This document shows, one piece after another, positions 1-64,000 of a stretch of 64,000 nt of DNA. The stretch is from positions 1,437,001-1,501,000 of the forward strand of contig NZ_CP060780.1 in the NCBI RefSeq assembly GCF_014489495.1, written 5' to 3'. The translations under genes and the position numbers were made by a program. How positions within the stretch are numbered: the first letter of the stretch is position 1; every line of letters starts with the position of its first letter. Source of the DNA: Sphingomonas daechungensis. Its GTDB lineage: Bacteria; Pseudomonadota; Alphaproteobacteria; Sphingomonadales; Sphingomonadaceae. The notes under the pieces were generated by a model. The model worked only from the letters and a program-made list of their open reading frames with translations, did no database searches and was not told the origin of the DNA.

Positions 1-428
1 ACCACCAACGACGCCAGCGAGCGCGCCCCGATGGCGCAGGCTGCAATCAACGAAGCGCCGCCCAGCCAGTCCGCCGGGAAGGTGATCTGGCGCCCGATGC
101 GAGTCTCGACATGCTTGCCCTCGACGGGCGCGATGAAGCGGTAGCCGTGCTTCGGAACCGTCTCGATGAAACGCGGCTTGCTCGCCTCGTCGCCAAGCAA
201 TCGGCGAAGGTTGGTGATGCACTGGCTGAGCGCTTCATCGGTGACCGGAACGCCCTTCCAGACGTCGTCGAGGAAACGATCGCGCGTGATCAGCTGCCCA
301 GGATTGCGAAGCATCAGGATCAACGCATCCAGGTAGCGGCTGTTGACCTCGATCGGATCGCCGCCGTTGGTCAGCCGTCGCTGATTGGCGTCGACCTCAA
401 ATCGGTCGAACTTGAACCGCGTGCTCAC
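1..428 (-). CDS. CadC-like winged-helix transcriptional regulator (C-terminus cut by window edge)
   Basis: The frame starts at a GTG (426-428) one base after the stop of the upstream HAD gene, which suggests translational coupling. About 142 residues are visible. The first ~95 form an OmpR/PhoB-type winged-helix DNA-binding domain: residues read 'SRYLDALILMLRNPGQLITR', then 'SQCITNLRRLLGD', then 'ETVPKHGYRF', the typical wing signature. A hydrophobic stretch follows near residues 120-142 (WLGGASLIAACAIG), as in CadC-type regulators where the DNA-binding domain sits in the cytoplasm and a membrane segment leads to a periplasmic or TPR sensor part. The sensor part lies outside the window, so the signal is unknown. 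No receiver domain precedes the helix-turn-helix. Confidence 0.8.
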   Translation of the reverse strand, partial: MSTRFKFDRFEVDANQRRLTNGGDPIEVNSRYLDALILMLRNPGQLITRDRFLDDVWKGVPVTDEALSQCITNLRRLLGDEASKPRFIETVPKHGYRFIAPVEGKHVETRIGRQITFPADWLGGASLIAACAIGARSLASLV

Positions 429-429
429 C

Positions 430-1095
430 TCAGTTCCAGTCCTCGATGGCCCAACCGCGCGTTTTCGCGAGCTTTGCCAATCGGTCGTGCGGGTTCACCG
501 CGACAGCCTCGTCGGACCATTCGAACACCGGCGCGTCGCTGGCATGGTCCGAATAGAAGCGCACATGACCCCGCTCGAAACCGCTCTTCGATAGCCAGTC
601 GGTCACCATCCGCAGCTTCGCCGGACCGTAGCAATTCTCGCCGTCAATCTTGGCGTGGACGCGTTCGTCGAGGCCGATGATCGAGCCGGTGCCGATCACA
701 TCGTCGAAGCCAAGACGGTCCCCGATCGCCTGTGCGTAAAGGCGATAGCTGGCGGTTGCCATGACCACACGCCGTCCTTCCGCCTTGTCTCGTGCGATCG
801 CCGCGCGCGCCCCGGGTCGGACATTCGATGCGGCGGTCTTTTCGGCGAAACTGTCGACGAGCGGCTTCAACTCGTTCGGATGCCGCTTCGACCCAAGCAG
901 CAAGCGATGATTGATCTCCTTCAGCCGGCCGCGATCGATCAGCTTCAGGACGTAGGCGAGCATCGACGCGATCACGAGCGGGATGAGCACCAGCCGCCAC
1001 GGCGCGCGATGCAGGGCGCAATGGATCAGGAATGGCGTGTAGGTCGCGTGGCGCGTGACGGTCCGGTCCATGTCGTAGATCGCGAAGTCGGTCAT
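430..1095 (-). CDS. HAD superfamily phosphatase, PSP/HAD-IB type
   Basis: A 221-residue hydrolase of the phosphoserine-phosphatase-like HAD-IB subfamily. Motif I is near the N-terminus as 'IYDMDRTVTRH' (DxD variant D-M-D), motif II is the 'VMATASYRLYAQ' strand, and motif IV is 'RFYSDHASDAPVF' with the paired acidic residues. A hydrophobic segment (residues ~33-52) lies in the cap region. The ATG overlaps the stop of the upstream nucleotidyltransferase gene (ATGA, 1092-1095), so the two are probably translated together. In the setting of a CDP-alcohol phosphotransferase and a nucleotidyltransferase, it may dephosphorylate a phosphorylated lipid or polyol intermediate. That substrate is inferred from neighbours only. 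Confidence 0.8.
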   Translation of the reverse strand: MTDFAIYDMDRTVTRHATYTPFLIHCALHRAPWRLVLIPLVIASMLAYVLKLIDRGRLKEINHRLLLGSKRHPNELKPLVDSFAEKTAASNVRPGARAAIARDKAEGRRVVMATASYRLYAQAIGDRLGFDDVIGTGSIIGLDERVHAKIDGENCYGPAKLRMVTDWLSKSGFERGHVRFYSDHASDAPVFEWSDEAVAVNPHDRLAKLAKTRGWAIEDWN

Positions 1096-1858
1096 GCGCG
1101 GCCTTCGAGGATCGCCGTGACCAACTCGTGATCGGCGGGCTTGTCGACGTCGACTGCCGCCAGCGGGTCGGACAGTTCGACCGCTTGGACGTTGAGGCCG
1201 AGCTTGCGCCCAACGCCATCAAGTGTCTGCTGCAACGTGCGGAGACGGAACAGCGCTCCGAGGAACCCGAAGACGCCGAGCGTCAGCAGCATCCGGATGG
1301 CCTTCTTCCGGTTCTGCTCGTTGGAGCCCATAGCTGCAGCGTCGAACGAATCTTCGGACTGCCGAGCAGGAACAGGTTCGCCCCGCTGTAGGCACCGCCG
1401 CGGAATTTCAGCCACGTGCGCTTGGTCTGCGGAAGGCGCTTCAGCAGCGCGGCCTGTGAAACCAGGCCGATCGCGACGTCCGCCCCCGCAGCCTTGCCGA
1501 GGAAGTCTGCGATCATCGCGGGCGTCAGCAAGGCGTGATCGGCAGTGGTCACTAGGATCGGCCAACGCACACTCGGATCGACGCACATCTTTTCCAGCGT
1601 AGCGGCAATCGTGTCGCCGGACGCCTCAACCGAAATGCGGGCGTCCTCGGGGAGCACGTCGCGAATTCTTTCGGGCTGCTGGGCGAGAACGCGCACCAAG
1701 GTGATTCCCTCGCTTTGCAGCAAGGCCTCGACCGGCCGGCGCACCATGGGTTCGCCGCCGACCGGTATGAGCGCTTTCAGGTCGGTGCCGTAGCTTTCGG
1801 CGAAGGGGTCCTTGCCTGGCCGCGATCCGGCCAGGACGACCGCGGTCGCCGCGCTCAT
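1092..1858 (-). CDS. MobA-like nucleotidyltransferase (one apparent frameshift)
   Basis: About 255 residues once repaired. The N-terminus has the nucleotidyltransferase signature 'TAVVLAGSRPG' followed by 'TDLKALIPVGGEPMVRRPVE', typical of enzymes that transfer a nucleotide from CTP or another NTP to a phosphorylated alcohol or sugar. A central 'WPILVTTADHALLTP' supplies the metal-binding aspartate strand. The frame breaks near 1328-1330, where the minus strand reads TATGGGCTCC; one more G restores 'LWGSNEQNRKKAIRMLLTLG' and the C-terminus. It overlaps its neighbours by 4 bp on both sides (ATGA). Placed between a CDP-alcohol phosphotransferase and a HAD phosphatase, it is a candidate for making the CDP-activated head group. 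The substrate cannot be read from sequence. Confidence 0.72.
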
Positions 1859-3068: not shown

Positions 3069-4169
3069 ATGGTCGCCTCAGCCGCATCCACCGCCGAGGG
3101 CGGGAATCCGACACTACGGATCAGAGGAACGCTGACGATCACGCGCGCGGCGAGCATCCAGCGAGAGATCGATGCGGAAGCCGACCCGTTGACGATCGAC
3201 CTGTCCGGCGTCGAGCGGATGGACACGGTCGGCGCCTGGCTGATCTACCGCGCGGTTCGCGACCGTCACGTCAAGGTCGTGGGCGCGAGTGCGGAGACCG
3301 AAGGCCTGCTTCACGAGGTCGCGGAATACGACAAGCCCGTGCAGGTCCGGCCGGAGGAAGGCCCAGGCTTCACGCGCGCCATCTCCGAACTTGGCGAGTG
3401 GATCGCCGAGACCGGGCGCACCTTGGTCGGCCTGCTCGGCTTCTTCGGCGCGACCCTGATCGGCCTTGCCAACGTGACCACCCGGCCCAAGCGCTTCCGG
3501 CTCAATGCCGTGGTTCAGCGCTTCGACGTCGTCGGCGTGAGAGCGCTCGGAATCATCGGGCTGATGAGCTTCCTGATCGGAATCGTGATCGGCCAGCAGG
3601 GCGCCGTCCAGCTCCAGCAGTTCGGAGCGGAGATTTACACCATCAACCTGATCGGTCGCATCACCGTCCGCGAGCTGGGAACGCTGATGACCGCCATCAT
3701 GGTCGCGGGCCGGTCCGGCTCGGCCTTCGCGGCCCAGCTCGGCACGATGAAGATCACCGAGGAAATCGACGCAATGAAGACGATCGGAGTCTCGCCGATC
3801 GAAGCGCTGGTCATTCCGCGCCTGATCGCCGCCGTCATCATGATGCCGCTGCTGGCATTCTGGGCGATGCTGATGTCGCTGCTCGGCGGCGGAATCTTCG
3901 TCTGGCTGTCGCTGGGGATCCCGCCGCTGACCTACGTTCAACGCCTCCAGGAAGTGATTCCGATCACCGACCTCTGGGTCGGCCTGATCAAGGCTCCGGT
4001 GTTCGGGTTCATCATTGCTTTGGCCGGCTGCTTCCAGGGCATGCTGGTCGAGGGCAATTCCGAAGAGGTCGGCCTGCGGACGACGACCGCGGTGGTGCAG
4101 TCCATCTTTCTCGTGATCGTGCTCGATGCAGTCTTCGCCGTCTTCTTCAGCTCGATAGGTTGGGGATGA
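3069..4169 (+). CDS. mlaE: MlaE-type ABC transporter permease with N-terminal STAS-like domain
   Basis: A 366-residue permease of the Mla/Ttg2 phospholipid transport system of the inner membrane. Residues ~15-95 look like a STAS domain (beta-rich, '[20 protein letters not shown]'), a fusion common in alphaproteobacterial MlaE. Residues ~120-366 are the MlaE permease with five hydrophobic helices and the conserved '[20 protein letters not shown]' loop that contacts the ATPase. The stop overlaps the mlaF start by ATGA, and the operon continues mlaF-mlaD-lipoprotein. It is divergent from the CDP-alcohol phosphotransferase gene, with 95 bp between the two starts. Confidence 0.92.
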
Positions 4170-4971
4170 GCATCGAAACGCCAAAAGGCTGTGTGCCGGT
4201 CATCGAGGTTCGGGGCCTTTCCAACCACTTTGGCGACCAGGTGATCCACGAGGATCTGGACCTGACCGTATGCCGCGGGGAGATCCTCGGCGTGGTTGGC
4301 GGGTCCGGCACCGGCAAGTCCGTCCTGATGCGGTCGATCATCGGACTTCAGACCCCTGCGGCGGGCGAGGTGGAGGTGCTCGGCGAGAACATGGTCGGCC
4401 GCGAGGAGGATGAAGCGAAGAACATCCGCCGCCGCTGGGGCATCCTGTTCCAAAACGGCGCCTTGTTCTCGACCTTGACCGTGGCCGAGAACGTCGAAGT
4501 CCCGATCCGCGAGTATTTTCCCTACATCAAGGCGCCGCTGCTCGACGAAATCGCGTCCTACAAGATCGCGATGGGTGGGCTGCCGCCAGATGCCGGACCC
4601 AAATATCCGTCAGAGCTGTCGGGCGGCATGGTCAAGCGCGCTGGCCTGGCCCGCGCTCTGGCGCTCGATCCTGAGCTCCTCTTCCTCGACGAGCCGACGG
4701 CCGGCCTCGACCCATATCGGCGGCGGCTTTCGATGACCTTATCCTTGGGCTGCAGAAGCGGCTGGACCTGACGGTCTTCCTCATTACGCACGATCTCGAT
4801 ACGCTTTACGCGATCTGCGACCGGGTCGCCGTACTCGCGGACAAGAAGGTCATTGCGGTCGGAACGATACCGGAACTCTTGGCTTTGGATCATCCTTGGA
4901 TACAAGAATATTTTAACGGGCCGCGCGGTCGGGCCGCGGCGGATACGGCGAAGGAGCACGCGCAGGCCTGA
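4166..4971 (+). CDS. mlaF: Mla-type ABC transporter ATP-binding protein (one apparent frameshift)
   Basis: About 268 residues after repair. Walker A is 'GGSGTGKS' (residues 45-52), the signature motif is '[16 protein letters not shown]', Walker B is '[13 protein letters not shown]', and the switch His is in '[17 protein letters not shown]'. The frame breaks at ~4712 directly after the D-loop, where GACCCATA lacks one C; adding it gives '[20 protein letters not shown]' and an uninterrupted C-terminus. It supplies ATP hydrolysis for lipid transport between outer and inner membranes with MlaE and MlaD. The ATG overlaps the mlaE stop, and its TGA shares a base with the mlaD ATG. Confidence 0.92.
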
Positions 4972-5922
4972 TGGAAACGCGTTCGAACTATGTGATGGTC
5001 GGCGCTGTGACCCTTGCGATGCTCGCGGGGCTGTTGCTGTTCACCGTCTGGATCGCCGGTCTGAATAGCAAGCAGACCAAGTGCTACGATATTTACTTCG
5101 CCCAGGGCGTGAGCGGACTCAACAAGGGTTCCAGCGTGTCCTTCTCGGGTGTCCCTGTCGGGCAGGTCGGCAAGATCTCGCTCCTTCCGAATCGTCCGGA
5201 GTTCGTCTGGGTCAGGATCGAAGTCGATAATGAAACCCCGTGCTTCAGGGGACGACCGCCCAGATCAAGGGTGTCGGCTTCACCGGTGTGAGCGAAATCC
5301 AGCTCGGCGGCGCCGTAAAGGGCGCACGCCCGATCACGCAGGCGGGACCACAGGGCTGCCCGGTCGTGCCGGCCAGCTCGGGGGTCTCGGCGCCTTGCTG
5401 AACAGCGCTCCGGAACTGATCGACCGGATCCAGCGGCTGACGGAGCGGCTGACCGAGTTGCTCAGCGACAAGAATCAGAACGCCATTTCCGACATCCTCG
5501 AGAACGTCGACCGCACCACCAAGGTCCTCGCCGATCGCGCGCCCGAGCTTGCGGACGCCATCGGCGATGCCCGCATCGCGGCTCGCGAGGCCGGCGTCGC
5601 CGCGCAGAAGTGGGGCGAAGTCGCCAACACGACAAACGGTATCCTGCAGGAAGATGCGAAGCCGGCGATGGCCAACCTCAACCGGGCGATCGCCTCGGTC
5701 CAGAGCGCTGCCGACAATCTCGACAAGGTGCTGGGCGACGCACGCCCCGGCGTGCAGAACTTCAGCAAGTCGACCTTGCCCGAAGCCAACCGCCTGATCC
5801 GCGACCTTCGCGATCTGACGCAATCGCTGAAGGGCGTGTCCGAGCGCGTCGAGCAGGGTGGAATCGGCGGCACATTGGGTCCGCAAAAGCTGCCCGACTA
5901 CAATCCGAGGAAGCAGAAATGA
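4971..5922 (+). CDS. mlaD: MlaD/MCE family lipid-binding periplasmic protein (two apparent frameshifts)
   Basis: About 317 residues after repair. One N-terminal membrane anchor (residues ~8-30, 'VMVGAVTLAMLAGLLLFTVW') is followed by a single MCE domain ('YDIYFAQGVSGLNKGSSVSF', 'GVPVGQVGKI'), the hexameric lipid-binding ring. The C-terminal ~180 residues are predicted helical and coiled ('LIDRIQRLTERLTELLSDKN', 'AADNLDKVLG'), longer than E. coli MlaD and typical of alphaproteobacteria. Breaks: ~5240, a C run (GAAACCCCG) one short; and ~5385, a G run (CTCGGGGGTC) one short. Both repairs give continuous MCE-family sequence ('VLQGTTAQIKGVGFTGVSEI', then 'GGLGALLNSAPEL'). Confidence 0.9.
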
Positions 5923-6535
5923 GACTGGCGGCGCGTGTTCTGGGTCCGTTGACGCTGGCGCTAGCTGTCGGCGCATGCTCGCTGAGTGGAGCTCTTGGCG
6001 GCGGCGGGAAGGCCCCGCATCGCTTTTGACGCTGACGCCGGATGCCGCGCCGACGGGCGAGTTCACGCGTGCCGCAAATGCCGGTCAGTCGGTGACCGTA
6101 AGCACACCGGTGGTGTCCAAGGAGCTTCGGACGACGCGCATCCCCGTCCGGGTCAGCCCGACCGACGTTCAATATGTGACCGATGCGCAGTGGATCGACA
6201 CACCGGACCGCCTGTTTGCCAACCTTGTTGCAGAAACAATTCGGCGGACGACCAACCGCGTGGTGCTCGATCCGGGAATGACTGGTCTCGATCCGGGGCT
6301 GATCGTGTCAGGAGAGCTCCAGGAATTCGGTTTCGACGCCGGCAGCGGCCAAGTAGTTGTCAGGTTCGATGGCGCGCTGTCGACGGCTGGCGGAACGCGG
6401 GTCGAGACGCGACGCTTCGAGGCTACCGTGCCCTCGGATGGCTCATCAACAGGCGTTGGACCCGCGCTTAACCAGGCCGCCAACAAGGTTGCGCACGACG
6501 TCGCCGGCTGGGTCGGGAACCGGCAGGCTCCCTAA
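5919..6535 (+). CDS. ABC-type transport auxiliary lipoprotein (PqiC-like; one apparent frameshift)
   Basis: About 205 residues after repair. A lipoprotein signal is clear: a basic start, a hydrophobic core and lipobox 'AVGACSL'. The rest matches the auxiliary lipoprotein family found at the end of alphaproteobacterial mla/mce operons: 'IPVRVSPTDVQYVTDAQWID', then 'LFANLVAETI' and 'GELQEFGFD'. The frame breaks at ~6013 in a run of four C (AAGGCCCCGCATCG); a fifth C restores reading. The start overlaps the mlaD stop (ATGA). It likely anchors in a membrane leaflet and assists the Mla complex. It ends 4 bp inside the 3' end of pepN on the other strand. Confidence 0.82.
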
Positions 6536-9159
6536 ACCAGGCTCTTGCTCGCCTGCTCGTAGACGTCGCGGGAAAGACCGCGCGAGTTCGCGACTCTCTC
6601 CAGCTGCTCCCGCATCAGTTCCGACCTTTTCGGTTCGAATCTCCGCCAGCGTCCGAGCGGAGGAACCAGGCGCGCTGCAATCTGTGGGTTGATCTTGTCC
6701 GCTGCGATGACGAGGTCGGCAAGGAACCGGTAGCCTCGCCCGAGGCGTCGTTGAACACCCAGTGGTTCGCTCCAAAACTTCCGCCGAGCGCGCGAAGCCG
6801 GTTCGGGTTCTGGATCGTGAAAGCCGGATGGGACGCCAGCCGCTCGACCTCGTCCAACGTTCCGGGCCGCTGCGCCGCCGCCTGCAGCGCGAACCACTTG
6901 TCGATGACCAAGGGGTCGTTTTCGAAGCGGTCATGGAACGCCTTCAAGGCGTCCGCCCGCTCCGGACCATCGAGCGACACCAGAATTCCAAGCGCTCCCT
7001 GGCGATCGGTCATGTTGTCGGCTGCGTCGAATTGCGCCTTCGCGAGGCGAGCGCCCTCGGCCGGATTGCCGCCAGCGATCAGTCCAAGCGAAACGGTGCG
7101 GAGCCGGCGCGTACCCTTGGCCAATGGCGAAAGGTCGGCCCCCGACCCGCTCACCGCCGATTGCGCCTTCGACAGTTCGTCGAACAGCGCCATCCCGAGC
7201 GCTGCCCGCAATTGCTCCCGCGCCGCGTGGATGGCGTCGGGATCGACCACCTCCAGCCGCTCGGCCACAACCGCTTCCTGGGGAAGCAGGATCGCTTCGG
7301 CCTTGAACGCTGGATCGAGTTCGTTCGACTGCAGAGTGTTGCGGACGGCCCGGATCAGCGGCTCGAAGTCCGGCTGTTCGCCCCTCGCTCCGTCGAGCAA
7401 GGCGGTGAACGCCAGTTCCTGCATCGCTTCGTAACGGGCGAAGGGATCGGTGTCGGTCTGGGCAAGGCGCTCCAGCTCCCCGTCGCGCCGGGAGCCGTGG
7501 ATCACGACGGGCGCCGAAAAGCCGCGATTGATCGACAGCAAGGGCGCTTCCTTCAGCCCTCGAACTGAACCTCGCGGCTAAGGCCGTCGACCATCACCAA
7601 TTGCTCGGGCGCAATTTCGGTGCCGCTCTCCTCGCCGATCAGCGCCGTCCTCAGCGGAATCGGCATCGTCTGCTTGCTTGGCTGCCCGGCGTCGGAGCGA
7701 CGCGCTGGTCGAGCAGGAGTGTGGCCGTTCCTGCGTCAGGGTCGTAGTCCAGACGCGCTCCGATCTGGGCGTGCCGGCCTGGCTGTACCAGATCTTGAAC
7801 GCGGACAGGTCGACACCGCTCGCATCCTCCAGCGACTTGACGAAGTCGTCGCAGGTCGCCGCCTGACCGTCGTGACGTTCGAAATAAAGGTCGGTGCCGG
7901 CCCTGAACTTCTCGGGTCCCAGCACGGTGCGAAACATGCGGATCAGCTCGGCGCCCTTGTTATAGACGGTCGCCGTGTAGAAGTTCGAAATCTCGATGTA
8001 GCTGTCGGGACGGACAGGATGGGCAAGCGGCCCGAATCCTCCGGGAACTGCACCATGCGCAGGATCCGCACATCCTCGATGCGCTTGACCGCCGCGCTGC
8101 CCATGTCCGCCGAGAAGCCCTGGTCGCGGAAGACGGTGAAGCCTTCCTTGAGGCTCAATTGGAACCAGTCCCGGCACGTGACGCGATCGCCGGACCAGTT
8201 GTGGAAATATTCGTGCGCGACCACCCGCGAGATATTGTCGAAGTCGACGTCGGTGGCAGTGTCCGGATCGGCAAGGACGTAGGCCGAATTGAAGATGTTG
8301 AGGCCCTTGTTCTCCATCGCGCCCATGTTGAAGTCAGACACGGCGACGATGTTGAACAGGTCCAGATCATATTCTCGGCCGTAGACACGTTCGTCCCAGT
8401 CCATGCTTGCCTTGAGGCTGCCCATCGCATGCTGGGTCTTGGGCAGGTCCGCTTCGCGCACCCAGATCGCAAGATCGACCTTGCGCCCCGACATGGTGGT
8501 GAAACTGTCGCGGTTGGCCTTGAGGTCGCCCGCAACCAGGGCGAACAAATAGGACGGCTTCGGAAACGGGTCTTCCCATTCTGCCCAGTGGAGCCCGCCA
8601 TCCAACTTGCCGGTGGCGATCGGGTTGCCGTTGGTCAGCAGGATCGGGAACTTGGCCTCGTCGGCCTCCATCCGCACCCGATACTTGCTGAGCACATCCG
8701 GGCGATCCGGGAAAAAGGTAATGCGCCGGAATCCTTCCGCCTCGCACTGCGTGCACAGCATGCCGTTGGAGGCGTAGAGCCCATCAGCTTGCTGTTGGCG
8801 GCGGGATTGATCTCGGTTTCGATCGCCACCTCGTGCGCATCGCCATCAAGCGTCACGACCAAGTCGCCGCCGTCCATCTCCCAGGCGTCGGACGTCTGGC
8901 CATCGACCCAGACCCCAAGCGGCTTCAGGTCGTCACCGTTGAGACGAAGAAGAGCGCCGCCAGACGCCGCTGGATTGCGCATCACGCTGAGCTTCGACTG
9001 GACGCGCGTCCGCTCGATTCCGAGAGTAAAGTTCAGCGCGATTTCCGGCACCAGCCAATCGGGCGGCCGATAATCTTCCCGGCGAATGGTGGCGTGGGTC
9101 GGCGAGGGCGGGGCCTCGGGTGCTGTCTCCGCGTCCGGGAGGGTTCGTACATCGGCCAT
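6532..9159 (-). CDS. pepN: Aminopeptidase N, M1 family (six apparent frameshifts)
   Basis: About 877 residues after repair, the usual PepN length. The M1 landmarks are intact: the exopeptidase motif '[11 protein letters not shown]' and the zinc site '[17 protein letters not shown]' with the third ligand in 'LSLKEGF'. It trims N-terminal residues from peptides in the cytoplasm. Six frame breaks, each repaired by one extra G or C, occur near 8778, 8031, 7771, 7685, 7558 and 6735. All six repairs rejoin recognisable PepN sequence, for example '[19 protein letters not shown]' and '[15 protein letters not shown]'. Six independent inactivating events in an otherwise conserved gene is unlikely, so base-calling error is favoured. 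No partner gene is evident upstream. Confidence 0.9.
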
Positions 9160-9260
9160 CGCCGCGACTTAGGGCGACGGCCATTGCTAGGCAATGAGGC
9201 TAAGTCCCTGTTATAGGCGGTCGGACCTGGACGTAGCACCATCCGCAGCAGGAGCAGCCG

Positions 9261-9673
9261 ATGATTCGATCCGCGTATATCCTCATCCCACTTGCGGCCC
9301 TTTCAGCGCTTGCCGCCGCGTGCGCCCAGCAGGACGCCGCGGGCGGTACGGCTTCCGCAGCCTCATCCAGTTCGGGCCGTGACTGCTTCAACGCGCGAAA
9401 CGTGAGCAGCTTCACGCCTCATGGGACCGATGCGGTCGATATTCAGGTGGGCGTTCGCCGTTATTATCGGCTCACGTTTGCCGGGGCCTGCCAGAACATC
9501 AACTGGGTCAATCGCGTTGCACTGGTCTCGCGCAGCGGTAGCTCGTTCATTTGTTCGGGGATGGACGCCGAGCTGATCGTCAAGGACTCGCCGATGGCCC
9601 GCAACGTTGCCTGGTGAACTCCGTCACCCGCATCAGCGACGAGGAAGCCAAGACCCTCAAATACTATAAGTGA
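9261..9673 (+). CDS. DUF6491-family small lipoprotein (one apparent frameshift)
   Basis: About 137 residues after repair. The N-terminus is a lipoprotein signal ending in 'LAAACAQQ', followed by a low-complexity Ser/Ala linker. The core 'RDCFNARNVSSFTPHGTDAV', then 'GVRRYYRL', then 'SSFICSGMDAELIV' matches the DUF6491 family found in sphingomonads and relatives. The frame breaks at ~9597, where GATGGCCCGC lacks one base; repair gives 'PMGPQRCLVNSVTRISDEEA', a typical family C-terminus. Three cysteines are conserved. Function is unknown; location is probably periplasmic and membrane-anchored. Family recognition is from memory of the motif pattern. Confidence 0.7.
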
Positions 9674-10600
9674 TCAGGCCGCGTCTGGCGGGACCACCAC
9701 GTTCCGCCCGCGCGTAAGGGCACCCAGCATCCCAGCAAGCGCCAGCACAGCGCCGGCAATGGCGATCGGCGTCCAGCGATAGCCCTCCAGTACGGTCGAA
9801 AAGGCCATGGCAATGATCGGGACAAGAACGCTGGAATAAGCGGCCTTCGCCGGCCCGATCTTCCGCACGACCGGATAGTAGAGGCTGAACGTCAGCACTG
9901 ACGCGGGCAAGGCAAGGTAGAGGACACCGAGCCAATAGCCCGGCCGGTCCTCGAAGACCGGCGGCCCGGCCATGAAGAACGCAATCGCGGCGTCTATGAC
10001 CGCTCCAGCCGCCATCGACCAGGCTAGCATCGAAAACAGCGGGAAGCGGCGAACCTCCTTTCGCGCCTGGAACACGTTCGCGGCTGAGGCCGAGACCATC
10101 CCGAGGAGAGCCAGGCCGATGCCGACTGAAATCTCATCGGCCCTTACCGAATGCTGCTCGAACTCGTGTGCGAACAACAAGACGATGCCCGCAATCGCCA
10201 CCAGCGAGCTCCAGACGAAGCGTCCGCTCGGCCGATGTCCGAGGAATGCCCAGGCCATCAACGTGCTGGGGATCAGCAGCAGCGCGAAGATGATGGCGAC
10301 CACTCCCGACGTGATGTGTCGCTCCGCCAGGTAGACGGCGTTGAAGTTGATGCAGAACTGCGCGAACCCGAGGAACAGCGCAGGCAGGATGGCGGCGCGT
10401 CCGAGGTTCAGGCTCTCGCCCCTCCATCGCGCAACCATTGCCATCGCCACTGCCGCGATGGTGAACCGATAGGTCACCGACCATTGCGCCGGCACCGTCC
10501 CGAGCTGGTCGCGGATGACGATCCAGGTCGATCCCCAGATCGCCGTGAAGATGATGAACGGCAGGCCGACCTCGGCGAAGGTCGATCGCGGTTGGCTCAC
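9674..10600 (-). CDS. EamA/DMT family transporter
   Basis: A 308-residue protein with about ten hydrophobic segments arranged as two EamA repeats ('IIFTAIWGSTWIVIRDQLG' opens the first, 'LAWSMAAGAVIDAAIAFFMA' opens the second half). Such proteins export or import small metabolites across the inner membrane; the substrate is not readable. The start is taken as GTG 10598-10600, which overlaps the threonine aldolase stop as GTGA, so the two genes are likely co-transcribed. A much longer open frame exists upstream but would run through the aldolase. The stop is immediately adjacent to the stop of the DUF6491 gene on the other strand. Confidence 0.82.
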   Translation of the reverse strand: MSQPRSTFAEVGLPFIIFTAIWGSTWIVIRDQLGTVPAQWSVTYRFTIAAVAMAMVARWRGESLNLGRAAILPALFLGFAQFCINFNAVYLAERHITSGVVAIIFALLLIPSTLMAWAFLGHRPSGRFVWSSLVAIAGIVLLFAHEFEQHSVRADEISVGIGLALLGMVSASAANVFQARKEVRRFPLFSMLAWSMAAGAVIDAAIAFFMAGPPVFEDRPGYWLGVLYLALPASVLTFSLYYPVVRKIGPAKAAYSSVLVPIIAMAFSTVLEGYRWTPIAIAGAVLALAGMLGALTRGRNVVVPPDAA

Positions 10601-11597
10601 AGCGCGGCGATGGCCGCGGCGAGTTGCTCGACCGGCTCGCCGCCCTGGTCCCAGCTCGTCACCAGCCGGATTTCGTCCGGCCCCAATCATAGAAATCGAA
10701 GCCCTTTGCTCGAAGCGACTCAGCCTCTGCCGGCGTTGCCCGAACGAAGATCTCATTGGCTTCGACGGGGTAGATCAGCCTCTCGCCTGTCGCCTTGGCG
10801 ATCGTTTGCGCGATCGCATTTGCCGAGCGCGCATTGGCGAGCCACCGGTCGTCTTCCAGCAGTGCCAGGATCTGGGCAGCGAACATGCGGCCCTTGGACG
10901 CCAGATGCCCGGCGCGCTTGCGACGAACGGCAATCTCGTCCGCGAGCTCCGGCCGGAAAAGGATCATTGCCTCTGCGTTGAGGCCGCCGTTCTTCACGAA
11001 CCCGAAGCTCAAGGCATCCACGCCGGCGCGCCACGTCAGGTCGGCCGGCGAGTCGCCGGTGCTGACGACAGCATTGGCAAAGCGAGCGCCGTCCAAGTGG
11101 AAGTTGAGGCCGTGTCGCCTGGCGACTTCGCCGAGAGCGCCAACTTCATCCGCCGAATAGACGAGCCCGTATTCCGTCGCGTTGGTGACCGAAAGCGCCT
11201 TGGGCTGTACCTGATGCACGTCCTTGCGAACGCGGCCGATCGCCCCATCGACGGATTCGACGGAGAGCTTCGCGCCGGGTCCGTCGACCAGAATCAGCTT
11301 GGCCCCATCGGCGAAGAATCCCGGAGCGCCCGCTTCGTCGACTTCGATATGCGCGTCGCGATGGCAGACGATGCCGCCATACCCCGGGCATAGCGCCGCC
11401 AGCGCCAAGCAATTCGCCGCCGTACCTGTCAGCACCCAGAAAGCGCGAACCTCGGTCTCGAAAACCTCGGAGAATGCGCGGTCGAGGCTCTGGCTCAGCG
11501 CGTCGCCGTCATAGGCCGTGTCCAGCCGGTTCGAGCGCGTGATCGCCTCGATCACAGCCGGGTGCGCGGCCGCCGCATTGTCGGAGAAAAAGCGCAT
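10597..11597 (-). CDS. Low-specificity threonine aldolase, PLP-dependent (one apparent frameshift)
   Basis: About 333 residues after repair. It begins 'MRFFSDNAAAAHPAVIEAI', the N-terminal signature of beta-eliminating PLP lyases that cleave threonine or allo-threonine to glycine and acetaldehyde. The cofactor region is present: 'HLDGARFANAVV' gives the PLP-pairing Asp, and 'SFGFVKNGGLNAEAMI' gives the Schiff-base Lys. The frame breaks near 10683, within GATTGGGGCCGGAC on the minus strand; one extra base yields 'YDWGPDEIRLVTSWDQGGEP' and a stop at 10597-10599. It is the promoter-proximal gene of a two-gene unit with the EamA transporter. Confidence 0.87.
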
Positions 11598-11809: not shown

Positions 11810-11926
11810 ATGTCGGGCAAGGACAAGGAACGCGAGGAACGGCTCGCCGCGGCGCTACGCGAGAACCTGCGGCGCAGGAAAGCGCAGGCGCGAGAATTGA
11901 AGCCGGGCGAGCCGAAGCGCGATTAG
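11810..11926 (+). CDS. Small highly charged protein, 38 residues
   Basis: ATG at 11810 opens a 38-residue frame reading 'MSGKDKEREERLAAALRENL' then a Lys/Arg/Glu-rich tail ending KPGEPKRD. The composition is almost entirely Lys, Arg, Glu and Ala, consistent with a single amphipathic helix. Its stop overlaps the stop of the PepP-like gene on the other strand (11923-11926). Proteins of this size and type occur in sphingomonad annotations, sometimes near murA, but function is unknown. A 38-codon frame of such skewed composition is unlikely by chance in this base context, though expression is not shown. Confidence 0.6.
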   Translation: MSGKDKEREERLAAALRENLRRRKAQARELKPGEPKRD

Positions 11927-21626: not shown

Positions 21627-21689
21627 CACGGACTCCCTGTTTCCGATCACTGACGTTAGGCTGGCTTTCCATCTGGGGAAAGGCGGCGA

Positions 21690-29918: not shown

Positions 29919-29976
29919 CCCGCCGCGCGGGCTCCGGCCTCTTTCCCCACCCGGGGACTGGTGAACTTATGCGCGG

Positions 29977-50737: not shown

Positions 50738-50738
50738 A

Positions 50739-52806: not shown

Positions 52807-53800
52807 TGGCCAAGCGCGACCTCGCCCCCGCAAACGATCCCGCCCGCCTGGAGCTGGAGTTCGAGCAGCCGTACCTGCTCGGCCCGCTGTTCGGCGATTA
52901 CGACCGGCACCTGATCACCATCGAGCAGAGGCTGGGCGTGCACATCGCGGCGCGCGGCAATCGCGTGCAGATCGAAGGCGACCCGGACTCGGCGGCGCGA
53001 GCCCGTGAAGTGCTGATCGGCCTCTACAACCGACTCGACCAAGGGCATGACGTCGATGCGGAAGCGGTCGAGGCCGTTCTCGGCATGGCCGTGCAGCCGA
53101 ACCTCGACGGTATCATCAACGAGCAAGTGGCATCGCCTCCAGGGGTGATGATCCGCACGCGCAAGAAGACGATCGTCCCGCGCTCGACGACACAGACGGC
53201 TTACATGGAGGCGCTGTCACGCGACGACATGATCTTCGCGCTCGGCCTGCGGGCACCGGCAAGACCTATCTTGCCGTCGCGCAGGCGGTGTCGCAGCTGA
53301 TCACCGGCTCGGTCGATCGCCTGATCCTGTCGCGACCTGCGGTCGAGGCCGGCGAGCGGCTCGGCTTCCTTCCGGCGACATGAAGGAGAAGGTCGACCCC
53401 TATCTCCGCCCGCTTTACGATGCGCTTTACGATATGCTTCCGACCGAGCAGGTCGAGCGTCGTATCGCCTCCGGTGAAATCGAAATCGCGCCGATCGCTT
53501 TCATGCGCGGCCGTACGCTCAACGACGCCTTCATCATCCTTGACGAAGCGCAGAACACCACGCCGCAGCAGATGAAGATGTTCCTGACCCGCTTCGGCAT
53601 GCGCAGCCGCATGGTCATCTGCGGCGACCCCAACCAGACCGACCTTCCGAACGGCGTGAAGTCCGGTCTCAACGATGCTGTCGGTAAGCTCGAAGGCATT
53701 AAGGGCATCGACACGATCCGCTTCTCGGCCGCCGACGTCGTCCGCCATCCGCTGGTCGGGCGCATCGTCGACGCCTATGAGGGCCCGGGCTCAACAATGA
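52806..53800 (+). CDS. phoH: PhoH family ATPase (at least three apparent frameshifts)
   Basis: About 332 residues after repair. The RNA/nucleotide-binding N-terminus is '[20 protein letters not shown]'. The first break (~53247, GGCCTGCGGG one C short) falls exactly in Walker A, where '[20 protein letters not shown]' is restored. The second (~53379, CCGGCGACATG) gives '[20 protein letters not shown]'. Walker B is '[20 protein letters not shown]'. Near 53785-53790 the run GGGCCCGGG needs further bases for a stop; with two added, the end is at TGA 53798-53800, overlapping ybeY by TGATG like other junctions here. Without repair the frame runs into ybeY. PhoH works with YbeY in RNA metabolism. Confidence 0.88.
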
Positions 53801-54303
53801 TGCTCGAGATCGACGTCGAATCCGATGACGAATGGGACAGTAGCACCGACTGGTCCCTGCTCGTCCGTCGCGCCGCTGAATCCGCCGTTGCGGAGAGCGC
53901 TTTCCCGCAGCTCGCGAGGGGCTCCCGCGCCGTGGAATTGTCGGTTCGGCTGACCGGCGACGAGGAAGTCCGGGCACTCAATTCCGAATGGCGCGGCAAG
54001 GACAAGCCGACCAACGTCTTGTCGTTCCCGATGTCCGAAGCCGAAGAGCTCGCAAGCGCGGACGGCGATGGGCCGGAACTGATGCTCGGTGACATCGTCC
54101 TCGCTCGCGGCGTTTGCGAGCGGGAAGCGGCCGAGAAGGCGGTCCCGGTCGAGACCCATGCGACCCACCTGCTGGTGCATGGAACGCTTCACCTGCTTGG
54201 CTACGACCACATGGCCGACGACGAGGCCGCCGACATGGAGAGCCGCGAAGTTCGCGCGTTGGCGAGGCTCGGCATTTCGGACCCTTACGCGGTGAGGGAC
54301 TGA
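53800..54303 (+). CDS. ybeY: Endoribonuclease YbeY
   Basis: A 167-residue zinc-dependent single-strand endoribonuclease used in 16S rRNA 3'-end maturation and ribosome quality control. The zinc signature is '[20 protein letters not shown]' (H-x3-H-x5-H), and '[20 protein letters not shown]' is the second conserved block. ATG at 53797 or 53800; the family N-terminus matches MLEIDVESD, so 53800 is preferred. Its stop overlaps the corC ATG. No frame break. The raw sequence reads as a PhoH-YbeY fusion, but this comes from the phoH breaks. Confidence 0.92.
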
Positions 54304-55179
54304 TGGCCACGCGTCACGACGAAGGCGGATCCCGCCTGTGGCGCGGCATGCGCTCCTTGCTTTTCGGCGAGGATAGCGAGCAGACCCTTCGCGACGAGAT
54401 CGAGGAAGCGATCGACGACGCCGAGGATTCGCGCCCGGTCGCCGGCGACCTTAGCCCGACCGAGCGGCAGATGCTCCGCAACCTGCTGCACTTCGGTGAG
54501 CGCAATGCCGGCGATATCTGCGTCACCCGTGGCGAGATGATTGCAGTGCCTTCGACCCTGTCGTTCGAGGACCTCGTCAGCGCGTTCGCCGACGCCGAGC
54601 ACAGCCGCCTTCCGGTCTATGGCGATGGTCTCGACGAGGTCATCGGCATGATTCACATCAAGGATGTGTTCAAGGCGCTGGTCGATCCCGGCCGCGGCCG
54701 AACCATCCAGGAATTGCTCCGCACGCCATTGTTCGTCCCGGAATCGATGGGGTTTTGGATCTGCTCGCGCGGATGCGCACCGAGCGCGTCCACCTCGCCA
54801 TCGTCGTCGATGAATTCGGCGGCACCGAAGGTCTCGTCACCATCGAGGACGTGGTCGAGGAGATTGTCGGGACATCGAGGACGAGCACGACATCGAGGAA
54901 GCGGGAATGCTGACCCTGCTCGACGACGGCGTGTGGGAAGCCGACGCCCGCATCGAGCTCGAGGAGCTGGCGAAGACGGTCGATGCACGACTGGTCTGGG
55001 AAGAGGACGAAGTCGACACGCTAGGCGGGTTGGTCTTCCTGCTGGCCGGCCACATCCCCGCGCGCGGCGAGTGCGTGGAGCATCCGTCAGGATGGAAGCT
55101 CGAAGCGGTCGATTCCGACCCTCGCAAGATCCTCCGCGTCCGGCTTCATGCGCCGGACGTCGGCGCTCAGGACGGCTAG
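54303..55179 (+). CDS. corC: CorC/HlyC family CBS-pair transporter-associated protein (two apparent frameshifts)
   Basis: About 292 residues after repair. Two CBS motifs span residues ~75-200 ('[20 protein letters not shown]', '[20 protein letters not shown]') and a C-terminal CorC_HlyC domain ('[20 protein letters not shown]', '[20 protein letters not shown]') follows. It lacks membrane helices, so it is the soluble CorC type linked with magnesium/cobalt efflux. Breaks: ~54751 (ATGGGGTTTTG one G short, giving '[20 protein letters not shown]') and ~54871 (GTCGGGACATC one G short, giving '[18 protein letters not shown]'). Start overlaps the ybeY stop. Confidence 0.9.
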
Positions 55180-58379: not shown

Positions 58380-58382
58380 ACC

Positions 58383-59336: not shown

Positions 59337-59518
59337 TGGCAACTTCCCACCCATTCCCGACAGGACGATAAAAGGACTGTCCTAGCTACCCGCACTGCGG
59401 GCATAGGCGGCTGCATGACCGTTCCCGCCTTCTCGTGCCTTCCACGACCGTCTCGCGTGCGGGGGTCGATGCGCGCGTTGAAGCGTGGACTTGGCGACCT
59501 TCAGCCGCGGAGCGCAGC

Positions 59519-61053
59519 GTGAAATTCGCGCGTTCGCCATTCCTCCTCGCTTTCGTTGCCGGGGCGGTGTCCGCTTTTGCGTTCCAGCCGGTCGGGCTGT
59601 GGCCGCTGATGCCGCTAGCTTTTGCGGCGCTCTGCGAACTGCTGACGCGGACGCGGAGCCTGAAGGGGGCGCTGGCGACCGGATGGCTCTTTGGGCTCGG
59701 CCAGTTCGTCATCGGACTCAACTGGATCGCGACCGCTTTCACTTACCAGGCCGCGATGCCGGCCTGGCTGGGCTGGATCGCGGTGGTGCTGCTCTCGCTC
59801 TACCTCGCCGTCTATCCCATGCTTGCGGCGGGGATTGCCTGGACGTTTGGGCGTCACCGGCCGATCGCGATGGTGCTCGGGCTGGCCGGAGCCTGGGCGA
59901 TCGCCGAGTGGCTGAGGGCGGGCATCTTTACCGGCTTCGCGTGGAATCCGGTCGCGGCGACCTTCGACAACACGCACCTTCTGAATGCGGCTGCCACCGT
60001 CGGAACCTACGGGCTGTCCGCCATCGTGGTGCTGGCCGGAGGATTGATCTTCCTGCTGGTCCGTCGGGACTGGCGATGGGCGGGGGAGTCGCGGTTTCGC
60101 TTCTGCTGCTCCACTTCCTTCCGCGAGCGGAGCTTGCCGCAGATTCCGGTCTCGCTATCCGCGTCGTGCAGCCCAACATCGGGCAGCAGGACAAGTGGCG
60201 GCCGGGCTATTCCGAAATCGCCGCGCAGCGCCTCGCGCAGCTTTCGATGGAGCAGCGTCCCGACGGCCCACGGCTGCTGTTCTGGCCGGAAGCGGCGGTG
60301 ACCAATCCCATGCTGGACGAGAGGTCGCAGCCCTACGGCGCCTATGCCGACTTCGAGCGGGCTCGCGCGGCGTCGCTGGTCGGGCCGGGCGATTATTTGC
60401 TGACCGGCGGGATCGCTCTGTTCTCGAAGGACAAGATCGCGGTCAGCGGCGCGGCCAACAGCGTGTTCGTCTTCGGCCAGGGCGGGCGGCTGGTCGGGCG
60501 CTACGACAAGGCGCATCTCGTGCCGTACGGCGAATATCTGCCGATGCGTCCGCTGCTTTCCTCGATCGGCCTGTCGCGGCTGGCGCCCGGCGATGTCGAT
60601 TTCCTGCCGGGCCCCGGTCCGCGGACGATCGAGCTGCCGGGGTGGGGCAAGGTCGGCTTCCAGCTTTGCTACGAGATCATATTTTCCGGGCAGGTCGTCG
60701 ATCGCCGCAATCGGCCGGACTTCATCTTCAATCCGTCCAACGACGCCTGGTTCGGCGCGTGGGGGCCGCCGCAGCACCTCGCGCAGGCGAGGCTGAGGGC
60801 CGCGGAGGAAGGCATTCCAGTGATCCGCTCGACACCGACGGGAATCAGCGCGGTGATCGATGCGCACGGGCAAGTCGTCCAGTCGCTGCCGTGGCGAACC
60901 GCCGGCTATTTTGACGGCACGCTCCCACCGCCCGCCGCGAAGCCGACCCTTTTCGCCCGATTTGGCAATGTCCTACCTTTGGGCATCGGCTTCCTACTCG
61001 TCATCGCGGCCATTGCCCTCGGACGGACGGGACGCTATCGGCGGAACACATAA
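59519..61053 (+). CDS. lnt: Apolipoprotein N-acyltransferase (one apparent frameshift)
   Basis: About 511 residues after repair. The N-terminal ~190 residues carry six membrane helices; the nitrilase-like domain follows with Glu in '[14 protein letters not shown]' (~residue 256), Lys in '[16 protein letters not shown]' (~330) and Cys in '[14 protein letters not shown]' (~383). It adds the third acyl chain to lipoproteins in the inner membrane; the lipoproteins encoded in this window would be clients. The break is at ~60082 (GCGGGGGAGTC one G short), giving '[20 protein letters not shown]'. Start at GTG 59519 behind GGAG; an in-frame extension upstream is unlikely. Confidence 0.92.
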
Positions 61054-61115: not shown

Positions 61116-62329
61116 ATGCGCAACTCGTATCTCTTCACGTCCGAATCCGTTTCCGAAGGCCACCCGGACAAGGTCGCCGACCAGATCAGCGACGCCATAG
61201 TCGACCTGTTCCTGTCGAAGGACCCGGAAGCGCGCGTTGCATGCGAAACCATGACGACGACCAACCGCGTCGTTCTCGCCGGCGAAATCCGCGGCCAGGG
61301 CATCATGGACGAAGAGGGCAATTGGGCTCCGGGCATCCGCGAGGAAATCGAGTCCGCGGTCCGCGGCGTCGTGAAAAAGATCGGTTACGAGCAGGAAGGA
61401 TTCCACTGGGATCGCCTCGACTTCGCCAACCACCTTCACCCGCAGTCGGCGCACATCGCTCAGGGCGTCGATGCCGGCGAGAACAAGGACGAGGGCGCGG
61501 GCGACCAGGGCATCATGTTCGGCTTCGCCTGCGACGAGACCCCGGACCTGATGCCGGCGACGCTCGATTACAGCCACAAGATCCTCGCCGAGATGGCTGC
61601 CGACCGCCACGCCGGCCGCGCGCCGTTCCTCGAGCCCGACGCCAAAAGCCAGGTCACGTTGCGCTTCGAAGAGGGCAAGCCGGCCAAGGCAACCGCCATC
61701 GTCGTCTCGACCCAGCATGCCAAGGGCTACGACCAGGGTGAGAAGCAGGCCGAGCTTCACGCCTACGTGAAGGGCGTCGTCGCCAAGGTCTTGCCGGCAG
61801 AGCTGCTCGGCAACGAGACCGTCTATCACATCAACCCGACCGGCAGCTTCGAGATTGGCGGCCCGGACGGCGACGCTGGCATCACCGGCCGCAAGATCAT
61901 CGTCGACACCTACGGCGGTGCCGCTCCCCACGGCGGTGGCGCTTTCTCGGGCAAGGATCCGACCAAGGTCGATCGCTCGGCCGCCTATGCCGCGCGCTAC
62001 CTCGCCAAGAACATCGTGGCGGCCGGCTTTGCCAAGCGCTGCACCATCCAGCTCGCTTATGCGATCGGCGTGTCCAAACCGCTGTCGCTGTACGTCGACA
62101 CGCACGGCACCGGCACGGTTGGCGACGAGCAGCTGGAGCAGGCGATCGGCAAGATCGAGAAGCTCGGCGGCCTGACCCGCGCGGCATCCGCACGCACCTC
62201 GCGCTCAACAAGCCGATCTACCAGGCGACCGCGGCCTACGGTCACTTCGGCCGCAAGGCGGAGGGCGAGTTTTTTCCATGGGAGAAGACGGACCTGGTCG
62301 AGGATCTGAAGGCGGCCGTCGCCGCCTAA
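61116..62329 (+). CDS. metK: S-adenosylmethionine synthetase (one apparent frameshift)
   Basis: About 404 residues after repair. Conserved blocks: '[20 protein letters not shown]' (ATP/methionine site), '[20 protein letters not shown]' (the GAGDQG motif) and '[20 protein letters not shown]' (the GGGAFSGKD phosphate motif). It makes SAM used by MiaB, TrmB and FkbM-type enzymes nearby. The break is at ~62186 (CGCGCGGCATCC one G short), giving '[20 protein letters not shown]' and a stop at 62327-62329. A palindrome lies 47 bp upstream. It is followed 5 bp later by trmB. Confidence 0.96.
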
Positions 62330-62334
62330 GGCCG

Positions 62335-63041
62335 ATGACCGCGCACAAGGCTGGCGATCCGACCACTCTCAATCGCCTTTACGGGCGGGCGAGCGGGCAC
62401 AAGCTGCGCAAGGGCCAGCAGGATCTGGTCAACAGCCTGCTTCCGCAGATCGAAGTGCCGGCCGAAGGCGATGTCACCGCCGCAGGCCTTTTCGGCGAGG
62501 ACCGGCCGCTTCATTTCGAAATCGGGTTCGGCTCGGGCGAGCACCTTGCCTACCGCGCGGACCTGCTGCCCGACCATGCCTTAATCGGGGCGGAGCCGTT
62601 CCTCAACGGGGTCGCAACGGCGCTCGGCATATCCGCGAGAAGCATTTGCCCAACATCCGCTTGTGGAAAGGCGATGCGCTGGAGGTGCTGCGCCGTGTGC
62701 CGGATGGCTCTCTGAGTTTCCTCTACCTGCTTCACCCGGACCCGTGGCCAAAGGCGCGGCACGCGAAGCGGCGGATGGTCAATGACGGGCCGGTCGACCT
62801 GTTCGCGGCCAAGCTGAAGCCCGGCGGCGAGTTCCGGCTCGCGACTGACGATCCGACCTATCTGAACTGGGCGCTGATGGTGATGCAGCGGGAGCGCCAC
62901 CTGCGTCAGTTCGAATGGTTGGCGAAGACGCCGAAGGACTTCCTCGAACCGTCCGGTGGCTGGATCGAAACGCGCTACGGTGCCAAGTCGCGGCGCGAGG
63001 GGCGCCGGCCTTATTATCTGCGCTACCGCCGCATCGCCTGA
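62335..63041 (+). CDS. trmB: tRNA (guanine-N7)-methyltransferase (one apparent frameshift)
   Basis: About 235 residues after repair. The SAM motif is '[20 protein letters not shown]' (E-x-G-x-G-x-G), '[17 protein letters not shown]' follows, then '[20 protein letters not shown]' (the PDPWPKxRHxKRR tRNA-binding signature) and '[20 protein letters not shown]'. It forms m7G46 in tRNA. The break is at ~62628 (CTCGGCATATCC one base short), giving '[20 protein letters not shown]'. It is in tandem with metK. Confidence 0.93.
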
Positions 63042-63058
63042 TTCTGTACAGGCGCGGC

Positions 63059-64000
63059 ATGGATATCCGCGACACCGTCCTTGCCGCGATCGGCAATACG
63101 CCGTTGATCAAGCTCCGCCGCGCCTCGGAAGAAACCGGCTGCCTCATCCTGGGGAAAGCGGAGTTCATGAACCCCGGTCATTCGGTGAAGGACCGGGCGG
63201 CGCTCGGCATCGTCACCGATGCGATCGACAAGGGCAGCTGCGACCGGGCGGGATCATCGTCGAGGGTACGGCCGGGAATACGGGCATCGGCCTCACCGTC
63301 GTCGGCAACGCGCTGGGAATGAAGACGGTCATCGTCATCCCGGAAACGCAAAGCCAAGAGAAGAAGGACACGCTGCGCTCGCTGGGAGCGACGCTCGTCG
63401 AAGTGCCGGCTGTTCCGTACCGCAACGACAACAATTACGTGAAGGTCGCCGCGCGCATGGCCGAGAAGCTGGCGCGGGAGCATCCGGAAGGCGCGATCTT
63501 CGCCAACCAATTCGACAATGTCGCCAACCGCAATGTCCATGTCCGCACGACCGGGCCGGAGATCTGGGCGCAGACCGACGGCAAGGTCGACGGCTTCGTC
63601 AGTGCGGTCGGCACTGGCGGGACGCTCGCCGGCACGGCGATTGCCCTTCGAGAACGCAAGCCGGACGTGGCCATCGCGATCGCCGACATCCCGGGGCCGC
63701 CCTCTACAGTTACTACACGACCGGTGAGCTGAAGTCGGAAGGGAGCTCGATCACGGAAGGGATCGGGCAGGGCCGGATCACCGGCAACCTCGAAGGTCTT
63801 TCCGTCGACGATGCTTTCCTGATCGAGGACCAGGAAAGCCTGGAGACGACACTCGGCCTGATCCGCGACGAGGGCCTGAGCGTGGGGCTTTCGACCGGCG
63901 TGAACGTCACCGGAGCGACGCGGCTGGCGCGCAAGCTGGGCCGGGCAAGGTGATCGTCACGATATTGTGCGACCCCGCGACCCGCTACCAGTCGCGCCTT
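63059..64000 (+). CDS. cysK: Cysteine synthase A, PLP-dependent (three apparent frameshifts; cut by window edge)
   Basis: Fold type II PLP enzyme making cysteine from O-acetylserine and sulphide. The PLP lysine is in '[20 protein letters not shown]', the phosphate loop is '[20 protein letters not shown]', and '[20 protein letters not shown]' is the second glycine loop. Breaks: ~63239 (repair gives '[18 protein letters not shown]'), ~63697 (CCCGGGGCCGCC, '[20 protein letters not shown]') and ~63941 (CTGGGCCGGGC, '[15 protein letters not shown]'). The C-terminus runs past position 64000. It could also be a cystathionine beta-synthase-like homologue, but the loop sequences favour CysK. Confidence 0.88.

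What the first reader, a model, noticed from the sequence alone, without database searches (positions are those of the whole stretch)
1..64000. About 54 single-base losses in about 33 genes, nearly all in G/C runs
Frame breaks occur in metK, lnt, phoH (3 or more), pepN (6), mlaD (2), corC (2), mmsB (2), cysK (3), nrdA, nrdB and others. Every one I checked is repaired by adding bases, almost always exactly one, at a run of three or more G or C, and repair restores conserved motifs (for example Walker A of PhoH and Ppk2, the catalytic His of the S9 peptidase). No case needed a base removed. This one-sided pattern argues for under-called homopolymers in an uncorrected long-read assembly. It also means an automated annotation of this sequence would list dozens of false pseudogenes and split proteins.
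Basis: partly seen in the sequence, partly recalled or inferred. Interest (0 to 1): 0.7.

Follow-up and report, generated by a model that had tools for sequence, protein, structure and literature searches.

The report
Sequencing error: shortened G/C runs
The many apparently broken genes in this Sphingomonas-type genome are almost certainly sequencing errors in which runs of G or C were read one base too short, so the genes are probably intact in the living cell.

Summary
A frameshift-aware comparison with relatives finds 39 frame breaks in 25 genes, over the 47.1 kb of the window that at least two relatives cover. All 39 are a missing base; the one opposite call comes from overlapping reference ORFs. 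The pipeline detects simulated deletions (294 of 300) and insertions (177 of 180) alike, and gives 0 missing-base calls in 171.6 kb of five clean relatives. Losses also occur elsewhere in the assembly. Evidence for under-called G/C runs: pooled placement puts all 37 placeable window events in G/C runs of true length 3 or more; long G/C runs are half as common as in relatives, A/T runs normal; the 23S rRNA gene, which has no reading frame, is short in 7 of 19 comparable G/C runs of 4-5 and 0 of 865 shorter ones; broken genes keep codon-level constraint. Published nanopore data report the same G/C bias. Corrections: nrdB is not broken; phoH has two breaks. Another assembly, G056, shows the same fault. 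Artefact, low interest.

The parts
1095..1858 (-). MobA-like NTP transferase-domain gene, 1 missing-base break near 1326
   Evidence: 3 of 3 relatives; Pfam of the relative's copy
3398..4968 (+). MlaF-like ABC transporter gene, 1 break near 4716
   Evidence: 2 of 2 relatives; best NCBIfam match MlaF, below its cut-off
4971..5916 (+). MlaD/MCE-family gene, 2 breaks near 5242 and 5379
   Evidence: 4 of 4 relatives each; NCBIfam, below cut-offs
5919..6529 (+). ABC-transport auxiliary lipoprotein gene, 1 break near 6013
   Evidence: 2 of 2 relatives; Pfam
6538..9159 (-). pepN, aminopeptidase N, 6 breaks near 6742, 7554, 7682, 7765, 8034, 8777
   Evidence: 5 of 5 relatives each; TIGR02414 over cut-off in the relative's copy
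9217..9670 (+). DUF6491 gene, 1 break near 9601
   Evidence: 2 of 2 relatives; Pfam
10600..11597 (-). PLP-dependent aldolase-type gene, 1 break near 10681
   Evidence: 5 of 5 relatives; Pfam Beta_elim_lyase
11926..13713 (-). Xaa-Pro aminopeptidase-like gene, 3 breaks near 12379, 12822, 13559
   Evidence: 6 of 6 relatives each; NCBIfam, below cut-offs
16130..18179 (+). S9 peptidase (oligopeptidase B-like), 2 breaks near 17976 and 18101
   Evidence: 5 of 5 relatives each
21687..22459 (+). ppk2, polyphosphate kinase 2, 1 break near 21826
   Evidence: 6 of 6 relatives; TIGR03707 over cut-off
27590..28062 (+). SNase-domain gene, 1 break near 27855
   Evidence: 3 of 3 relatives; Pfam; not placeable to a run
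29595..30289 (-). conserved gene without a Pfam match, 1 break near 29925-29949
   Evidence: 5 of 5 relatives
30335..32280 (-). nrdA, 1 break near 31481
   Evidence: 7 of 7 relatives; Pfam
32561..33865 (-). CitMHS-type transporter gene, 3 breaks near 32873, 33082, 33567
   Evidence: 3 of 3 relatives each; Pfam
42273..43411 (+). acyl-CoA dehydrogenase gene, 1 break near 42457
   Evidence: 3 of 3 relatives; Pfam
43408..44456 (+). enoyl-CoA hydratase/isomerase (ECH_2) gene, 1 break near 43478
   Evidence: 3 of 3 relatives; Pfam
45342..46230 (+). mmsB-type 3-hydroxyisobutyrate dehydrogenase gene, 2 breaks near 45409 and 45831
   Evidence: 3 of 3 relatives each; Pfam
46790..47442 (+). cytochrome b561-type gene, 1 break near 47013
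   Evidence: 3 of 3 relatives; Pfam
49735..50156 (+). ROS/MUCR regulator gene, 1 break near 50048
   Evidence: 3 of 3 relatives; Pfam
50631..51478 (+). acyltransferase gene, 1 break near 51241
   Evidence: 3 of 3 relatives; Pfam
52686..53787 (+). phoH, 2 breaks near 53245 and 53376
   Evidence: 3 of 3 relatives each; Pfam
54303..55158 (+). corC, 2 breaks near 54754 and 54873
   Evidence: 5 of 5 relatives each; Pfam
59495..61053 (+). lnt, 1 break near 60086
   Evidence: LNT_N and CN_hydrolase lie in different frames; in-frame copies of G021, G010 and G072 each need one base there, G016 the same frame change
61116..62323 (+). metK, 1 break near 62176
   Evidence: profile 1-101 and 105-138 in two frames; 3 of 3 relatives
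62320..63032 (+). trmB-type methyltransferase gene, 1 break near 62627
   Evidence: 3 of 3 relatives; Pfam Methyltransf_4
62956..63953 (+). PLP-dependent (cysK-like) gene split over two frames, at least 1 break; not in the count of 39
   Evidence: PALP profile 50-191 and 201-284 in two ORFs; no relative's copy compared

Best explanation
The frame breaks are consensus errors of a long-read, probably nanopore, assembly that was not adequately polished. Runs of G or C were read one base too short, more often the longer the run (rarely at three, several per cent at four, a large share at five and above), while A/T runs were left alone. In this 63-64% G+C genome that puts about 0.7-0.8 losses per kb into coding sequence. 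The genes are intact in the organism. Shown here: sign, G/C runs, run-length dependence, occurrence elsewhere on contig 1 and on contig 2, and in 23S rRNA. Inferred: the platform, and that polishing was missing or weak.
For: 39 missing against 1 (artefactual) extra base in 47,096 bp, while 294 of 300 simulated deletions and 177 of 180 insertions are detected. 0 missing-base calls in 171,599 bp of G076, G021, G010, G016 and L023. Pooled EM placement: 37 of 39 window events placeable, estimated 5.1 in G/C runs of true length 3, 17.1 in 4, 11.8 in 5, 3.0 in 6 or more, none in A/T; over G000 a likelihood gain of 99.9 nats over a flat model, and on 238 simulated deletions the estimator does not invent long-run losses. 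G/C runs of 5 or more: odds ratio 0.50, p 5.5e-18; A/T: 0.97, p 0.79. 23S rRNA: 7 of 19 comparable G/C runs of 4-5 one base short, 0 of 865 of length 1-3. Constraint kept in broken genes. Published nanopore behaviour. Completeness 86.6% against 98-100% for 21 of 23 single-contig relatives.
Against: No reads were seen. Single events are poorly placed: a first localiser put 20 of 35 at single bases, and under a flat prior 19.1 of 52 go to single G/C bases; the run attribution rests on pooled likelihood, run census and 23S. Three of ten 23S gaps are not plain G/C-run shortenings, and 1 of 808 A/T runs is short. Only 15 of 31 single-base events outside the window could be placed, 2.0 of them estimated in runs of two. 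Two further extra-base calls in G000 were not examined. The rate for runs of six exceeds one, because observed runs serve as denominators.
Confidence: 0.97

Rival explanations
1. Real mass pseudogenisation: the lineage has truly lost bases in G/C runs of nearly half of its comparable genes, for instance as a mutator or a decaying symbiont.
For: 24 of 51 comparable gene clusters are broken, and slippage mutations do favour runs (general knowledge).
Against: metK, nrdA, lnt and the only 23S match are hit; broken genes differ from a clean relative at codon positions 1/2/3 by 0.142/0.097/0.409, intact ones by 0.198/0.155/0.474; no gains of bases, and A/T runs are spared.
Confidence: 0.01
2. The breaks are real but are rescued by transcriptional or ribosomal slippage at the runs.
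For: They lie in runs; slippage rescue is known from some A+T-rich endosymbionts (recalled, not looked up).
Against: The 23S gene carries the same losses, where no frame needs rescue; five clean relatives show no such breaks.
Confidence: 0.005
3. Losses at modified bases or at a C or G between two short runs (such as GGCGG), which only look like run losses afterwards.
For: Under a flat prior 12.5 of 52 events fit a single G/C base between two equal bases; naive placement prefers such sites for several events.
Against: The pooled model gives them nothing; the 23S alignment shows plain run shortenings, 0 of 619 single G/C bases lost; long G/C runs are depleted. A minority of such events is not excluded.
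Confidence: 0.015

Closest known systems
Homopolymer-length deletion errors of Oxford Nanopore reads (PMC8486125, passages seen)
   Same: Deletions dominate, errors rise with run length from about five (four in high-GC bacteria), C and G runs are worse than A and T runs.
   Different: That is at read level; here the errors remain in the consensus. Platform not verified here.
Systematic errors left in nanopore-only assemblies, the target of Homopolish (PMC8011154, passages seen)
   Same: Indels mainly in homopolymers that shift reading frames; 151-5298 pseudogenes in R9.4 assemblies after Racon and Medaka.
   Different: Those assemblies also hold insertions; in this window no genuine extra base was found.
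Gene-fragmenting errors in long-read drafts, Kastor (PMC12007338, passages seen)
   Same: A draft with 1234 PGAP pseudogenes (23.3% of genes), most indels being false deletions; found by comparison with relatives.
   Different: Other genus; some insertion errors there.

Membership tests
Long-read homopolymer under-call artefact | One-sided loss of single bases | tested here: met
   39 missing, 1 artefactual extra in the window; equal power for both signs
Long-read homopolymer under-call artefact | Losses in homopolymer runs, rising with run length | tested here: met
   23S 0 of 865, 4 of 15, 3 of 4 for lengths 1-3, 4, 5; run census
Long-read homopolymer under-call artefact | Spread over the assembly, coding or not | tested here: met
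   Missing-base calls in 8 of the 9 other G000 targets with covered genes, contig 2 included; 23S rRNA
Long-read homopolymer under-call artefact | Absent from accurate reads of the same sample | not testable with these tools
   No reads are held
Nanopore as the platform | C/G runs called worse than A/T runs | tested here: met
   G/C odds ratio 0.50, A/T 0.97; literature passage. Compatible with, not proof of, nanopore
Nanopore as the platform | Assembly record names the platform | not tested
True pseudogenes | Relaxed constraint, or confinement to dispensable genes | tested here: not met
   16 measurable broken clusters are at least as constrained as 16 intact ones; metK, nrdA and lnt are among the broken

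The most novel reading that the evidence does not exclude
The short runs are real: a lineage that contracts G/C runs, and only those, across its genome including its 23S rRNA gene, and lives with it by slippage or some correction of its RNAs; G056 would share the trait.
Probability: 0.005. Interest if true: 0.95.

Novelty: not a real feature. Interest (0 to 1): 0.1.

Why it matters
24 of 51 comparable gene clusters in this window would be annotated as pseudogenes or split proteins although the genes are most likely intact. Extending the sampled rate (72 in 97.4 kb) gives some 2,200 losses over the 3.0 Mb assembly (inference). The low completeness score, apparent gene losses, and family trees or pangenomes built on it are affected. 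Counting G/C against A/T runs reveals the fault without reads, and it flags a second assembly of the genus.

Tried and rejected
A first nucleotide localiser without a rate model (35 of 39 placed, 20 of them at single bases) and a posterior with fixed match probabilities (36 of 39) gave scattered placements. They ignore codon usage and the pooled rate and were replaced by a codon-substitution model with EM, checked on simulated deletions. On those it under-recovers A/T doubles (8.6 for 21) and over-assigns single G/C bases (101.3 for 82), but adds nothing to G/C runs of four or more (0.1 for 3).

A nearer relative was sought among the 71 genomes of the genus (own included); the best, G056, is 79-87% in DNA there (90% over window 28292-30000). 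Regions around the M28 peptidase gene in five relatives and eight named loci covered only 20.9 kb of the window, so orthologous places were located by DNA search and fetched.

Extra-base calls: 1 in the window, 2 elsewhere in G000, 1 in G056, 4 in the clean relatives. Only the window's was looked into; the others were left as background. Of the 33 missing-base calls elsewhere in G000, 31 are a single lost base and 2 are two extra bases, the same frame change; two of the 33 belong to an antisense shadow cluster; 9 of the 18 other targets had no covered gene. Calls backed by one relative (for example 9257, 45224) were dropped before counting.

The 23S test rests on one full-length comparison copy (G010) and part of G014; 5 of the 8 genomes searched returned no match. 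Runs with substituted cores or differing flanks (6 of 25 of lengths 4-5) were set aside. G010, richer in G+C, was left out of the pooled run comparison but is.

A suspected lnt-metK fusion in G016 and G010 was rejected: the long ORFs are metK extended upstream outside the lnt frame.
Full report
What the window is. It is bases 1,437,001-1,501,000 of contig 1 of a 3.008-Mb, two-contig genome with 86.6% completeness and 3.2% contamination. By the intact M28 peptidase the best matches are Sphingomonas caseinilyticus (76%) and five Sphingomonas MAGs (71-75%). Of 23 single-contig relatives listed, 21 are 98-100% complete; the exceptions are G056 (90%) and G069 (93%).

How the breaks were counted. 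Relatives' ORFs were aligned to the window with a frameshift-aware protein-to-DNA dynamic programme (frameshift penalty 18, BLOSUM62). A break was accepted only if at least two different relatives, and at least 60% of those spanning the place, agree and no opposite shift lies nearby. Result for the window: 51 gene clusters with two or more relatives, 47,096 bp, 39 missing-base breaks in 24 clusters (25 genes, since lnt and metK fell into one cluster) and one extra-base call. The extra call lies where two reference ORFs of G016 overlap.

Controls. The same pipeline on G076, G021, G010, G016 and the S. caseinilyticus locus L023 gave 0 missing-base and 4 extra-base calls in 171,599 bp and 162 gene clusters. 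On copies of the window with random edits it recovered 294 of 300 deletions and 177 of 180 insertions, so the one-sided sign is not a detection bias. Other stretches of the same genome (400 kb fetched, 50,260 bp covered) gave 33 missing-base and 2 extra-base calls, two of the 33 on contig 2. One gene at about 1.197 Mb carries eight; why so many was not followed up.

Where the losses lie. For each event all one-base additions were scored against relatives' codons with a substitution table made from intact aligned genes, and the loss rate per run class was estimated by EM. Over 52 placeable of 70 single-base events in G000 the estimate is 1.3 in G/C runs of true length two, 9.7 in three, 24.4 in four, 12.7 in five and 4.0 in six or more, with none in A/T and none in single bases. 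For the window alone 37 of 39 are placeable, all in G/C runs of three or more; elsewhere 15 of 31, with 2.0 in runs of two. The bootstrap share in G/C runs of three or more is 0.97, with a 2.5% limit of 0.88. The likelihood gain over a flat model is 99.9 nats for 52 events. On 238 simulated random deletions the estimator returned a near-flat spectrum, with some shift from A/T doubles to single G/C bases. The rates per run, 0.5% at three, 7.4% at four and 31% at five, use observed run counts as denominators and overstate the longest classes. Single events are not well placed: under a flat prior 19.1 of 52 would go to single G/C bases.

Two tests that need no reading frame. First, a census of runs. 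G/C runs of five stand at 0.63 (window) and 0.71 (sample) of the order-2 Markov expectation and runs of six at 0.49 and 0.17. In G076, G021, G010, G016, G009, G014 and the pooled loci L023-L028 runs of five stand at 1.01-1.12; at six these scatter from 0.34 to 1.25 on small counts. A/T runs of five are at 1.01 and 1.20 in G000. Against G076, G021 and G016 the odds ratio for G/C runs of five or more is 0.50 (203 against 10,860 runs of 3-4 in G000; 518 against 13,797 in the relatives; p = 5.5e-18), for A/T 0.97 (p = 0.79). Second, the 23S rRNA gene, with one match in the genome. Against G010, 93.9% identical over 2,783 aligned positions, it has ten single-base gaps, of which seven are plain shortenings of G or C runs of four or five. 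Of comparable runs 4 of 15 of length four and 3 of 4 of length five are short, against 0 of 865 G/C runs of one to three and 1 of 808 A/T runs; no comparable run of G000 is short in G010.

Are the genes alive? Away from the breaks, 16 measurable broken clusters differ from a clean relative at codon positions 1, 2 and 3 by 0.142, 0.097 and 0.409, and 16 intact ones by 0.198, 0.155 and 0.474. The broken genes are at least as constrained. They include metK, nrdA and lnt.

Confirmed: pepN 6, mlaD 2, corC 2, mmsB 2, metK, lnt, nrdA, ppk2 and the S9 peptidase. Not confirmed: nrdB, which is open across the aligned 3-361 of 361 residues, and a third phoH break, since three of three relatives agree on exactly two. 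cysK: at least one. The total of about 54 is plausible, but 39 is what two or more relatives support.

Literature. Passages of PMC8486125 say that most nanopore read errors are deletions, that homopolymers are called rather well up to length five (four in human and high-GC bacteria), and that for longer ones C and G runs are significantly worse than A and T. Passages of PMC8011154 give 151-5298 pseudogenes in R9.4 assemblies after Racon and Medaka and 10-126 after homologous polishing. Passages of PMC9262707 say R10.4 resolves most homopolymers at consensus level. Passages of PMC12007338 describe a draft with 23.3% pseudogenes. One search for nanopore, frameshift, soil, MAGs and Sphingomonas listed two papers, neither by its title on this genome.

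Verdict. The feature belongs to the assembly, not to the organism. A second genome of the genus, G056, shows the same signature: 21 missing-base and 1 extra-base call in 55,770 bp, 17 of the 21 placeable and estimated all in G/C runs (1.2 in runs of two, 15.9 in four or five), and long G/C runs depleted with odds ratio 0.52, p = 9.5e-9.

Noticed in passing
G056 (L219-L222, L253-L257): A second single-contig assembly of the genus (90% complete) has the same missing-base signature: 21 breaks in 55,770 bp and depleted long G/C runs.
   Followed up: partly
window 45253-45330: A palindromic interspersed element of about 78 bp (fold z-score -4.6) lies between the enoyl-CoA hydratase and mmsB-type genes; similar copies occur at about 13 places in G016 and one in G021.
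   Followed up: partly
window 29595-30289: A conserved gene without a Pfam match sits between nrdB and nrdA and is kept in at least five relatives.
   Followed up: no
L239 16922-18674 (G000:C1 about 1,196,922-1,198,674): One gene at 59% identity to its relative carries eight missing-base breaks, far above the average; poor local read depth or a true pseudogene are both possible.
   Followed up: no
L142 1446-4346 and L135 1386-4109: In G016 and G010 an open frame of 967 and 908 residues runs from outside the lnt frame into metK; a mechanical annotation could report a false lnt-metK fusion.
   Followed up: partly
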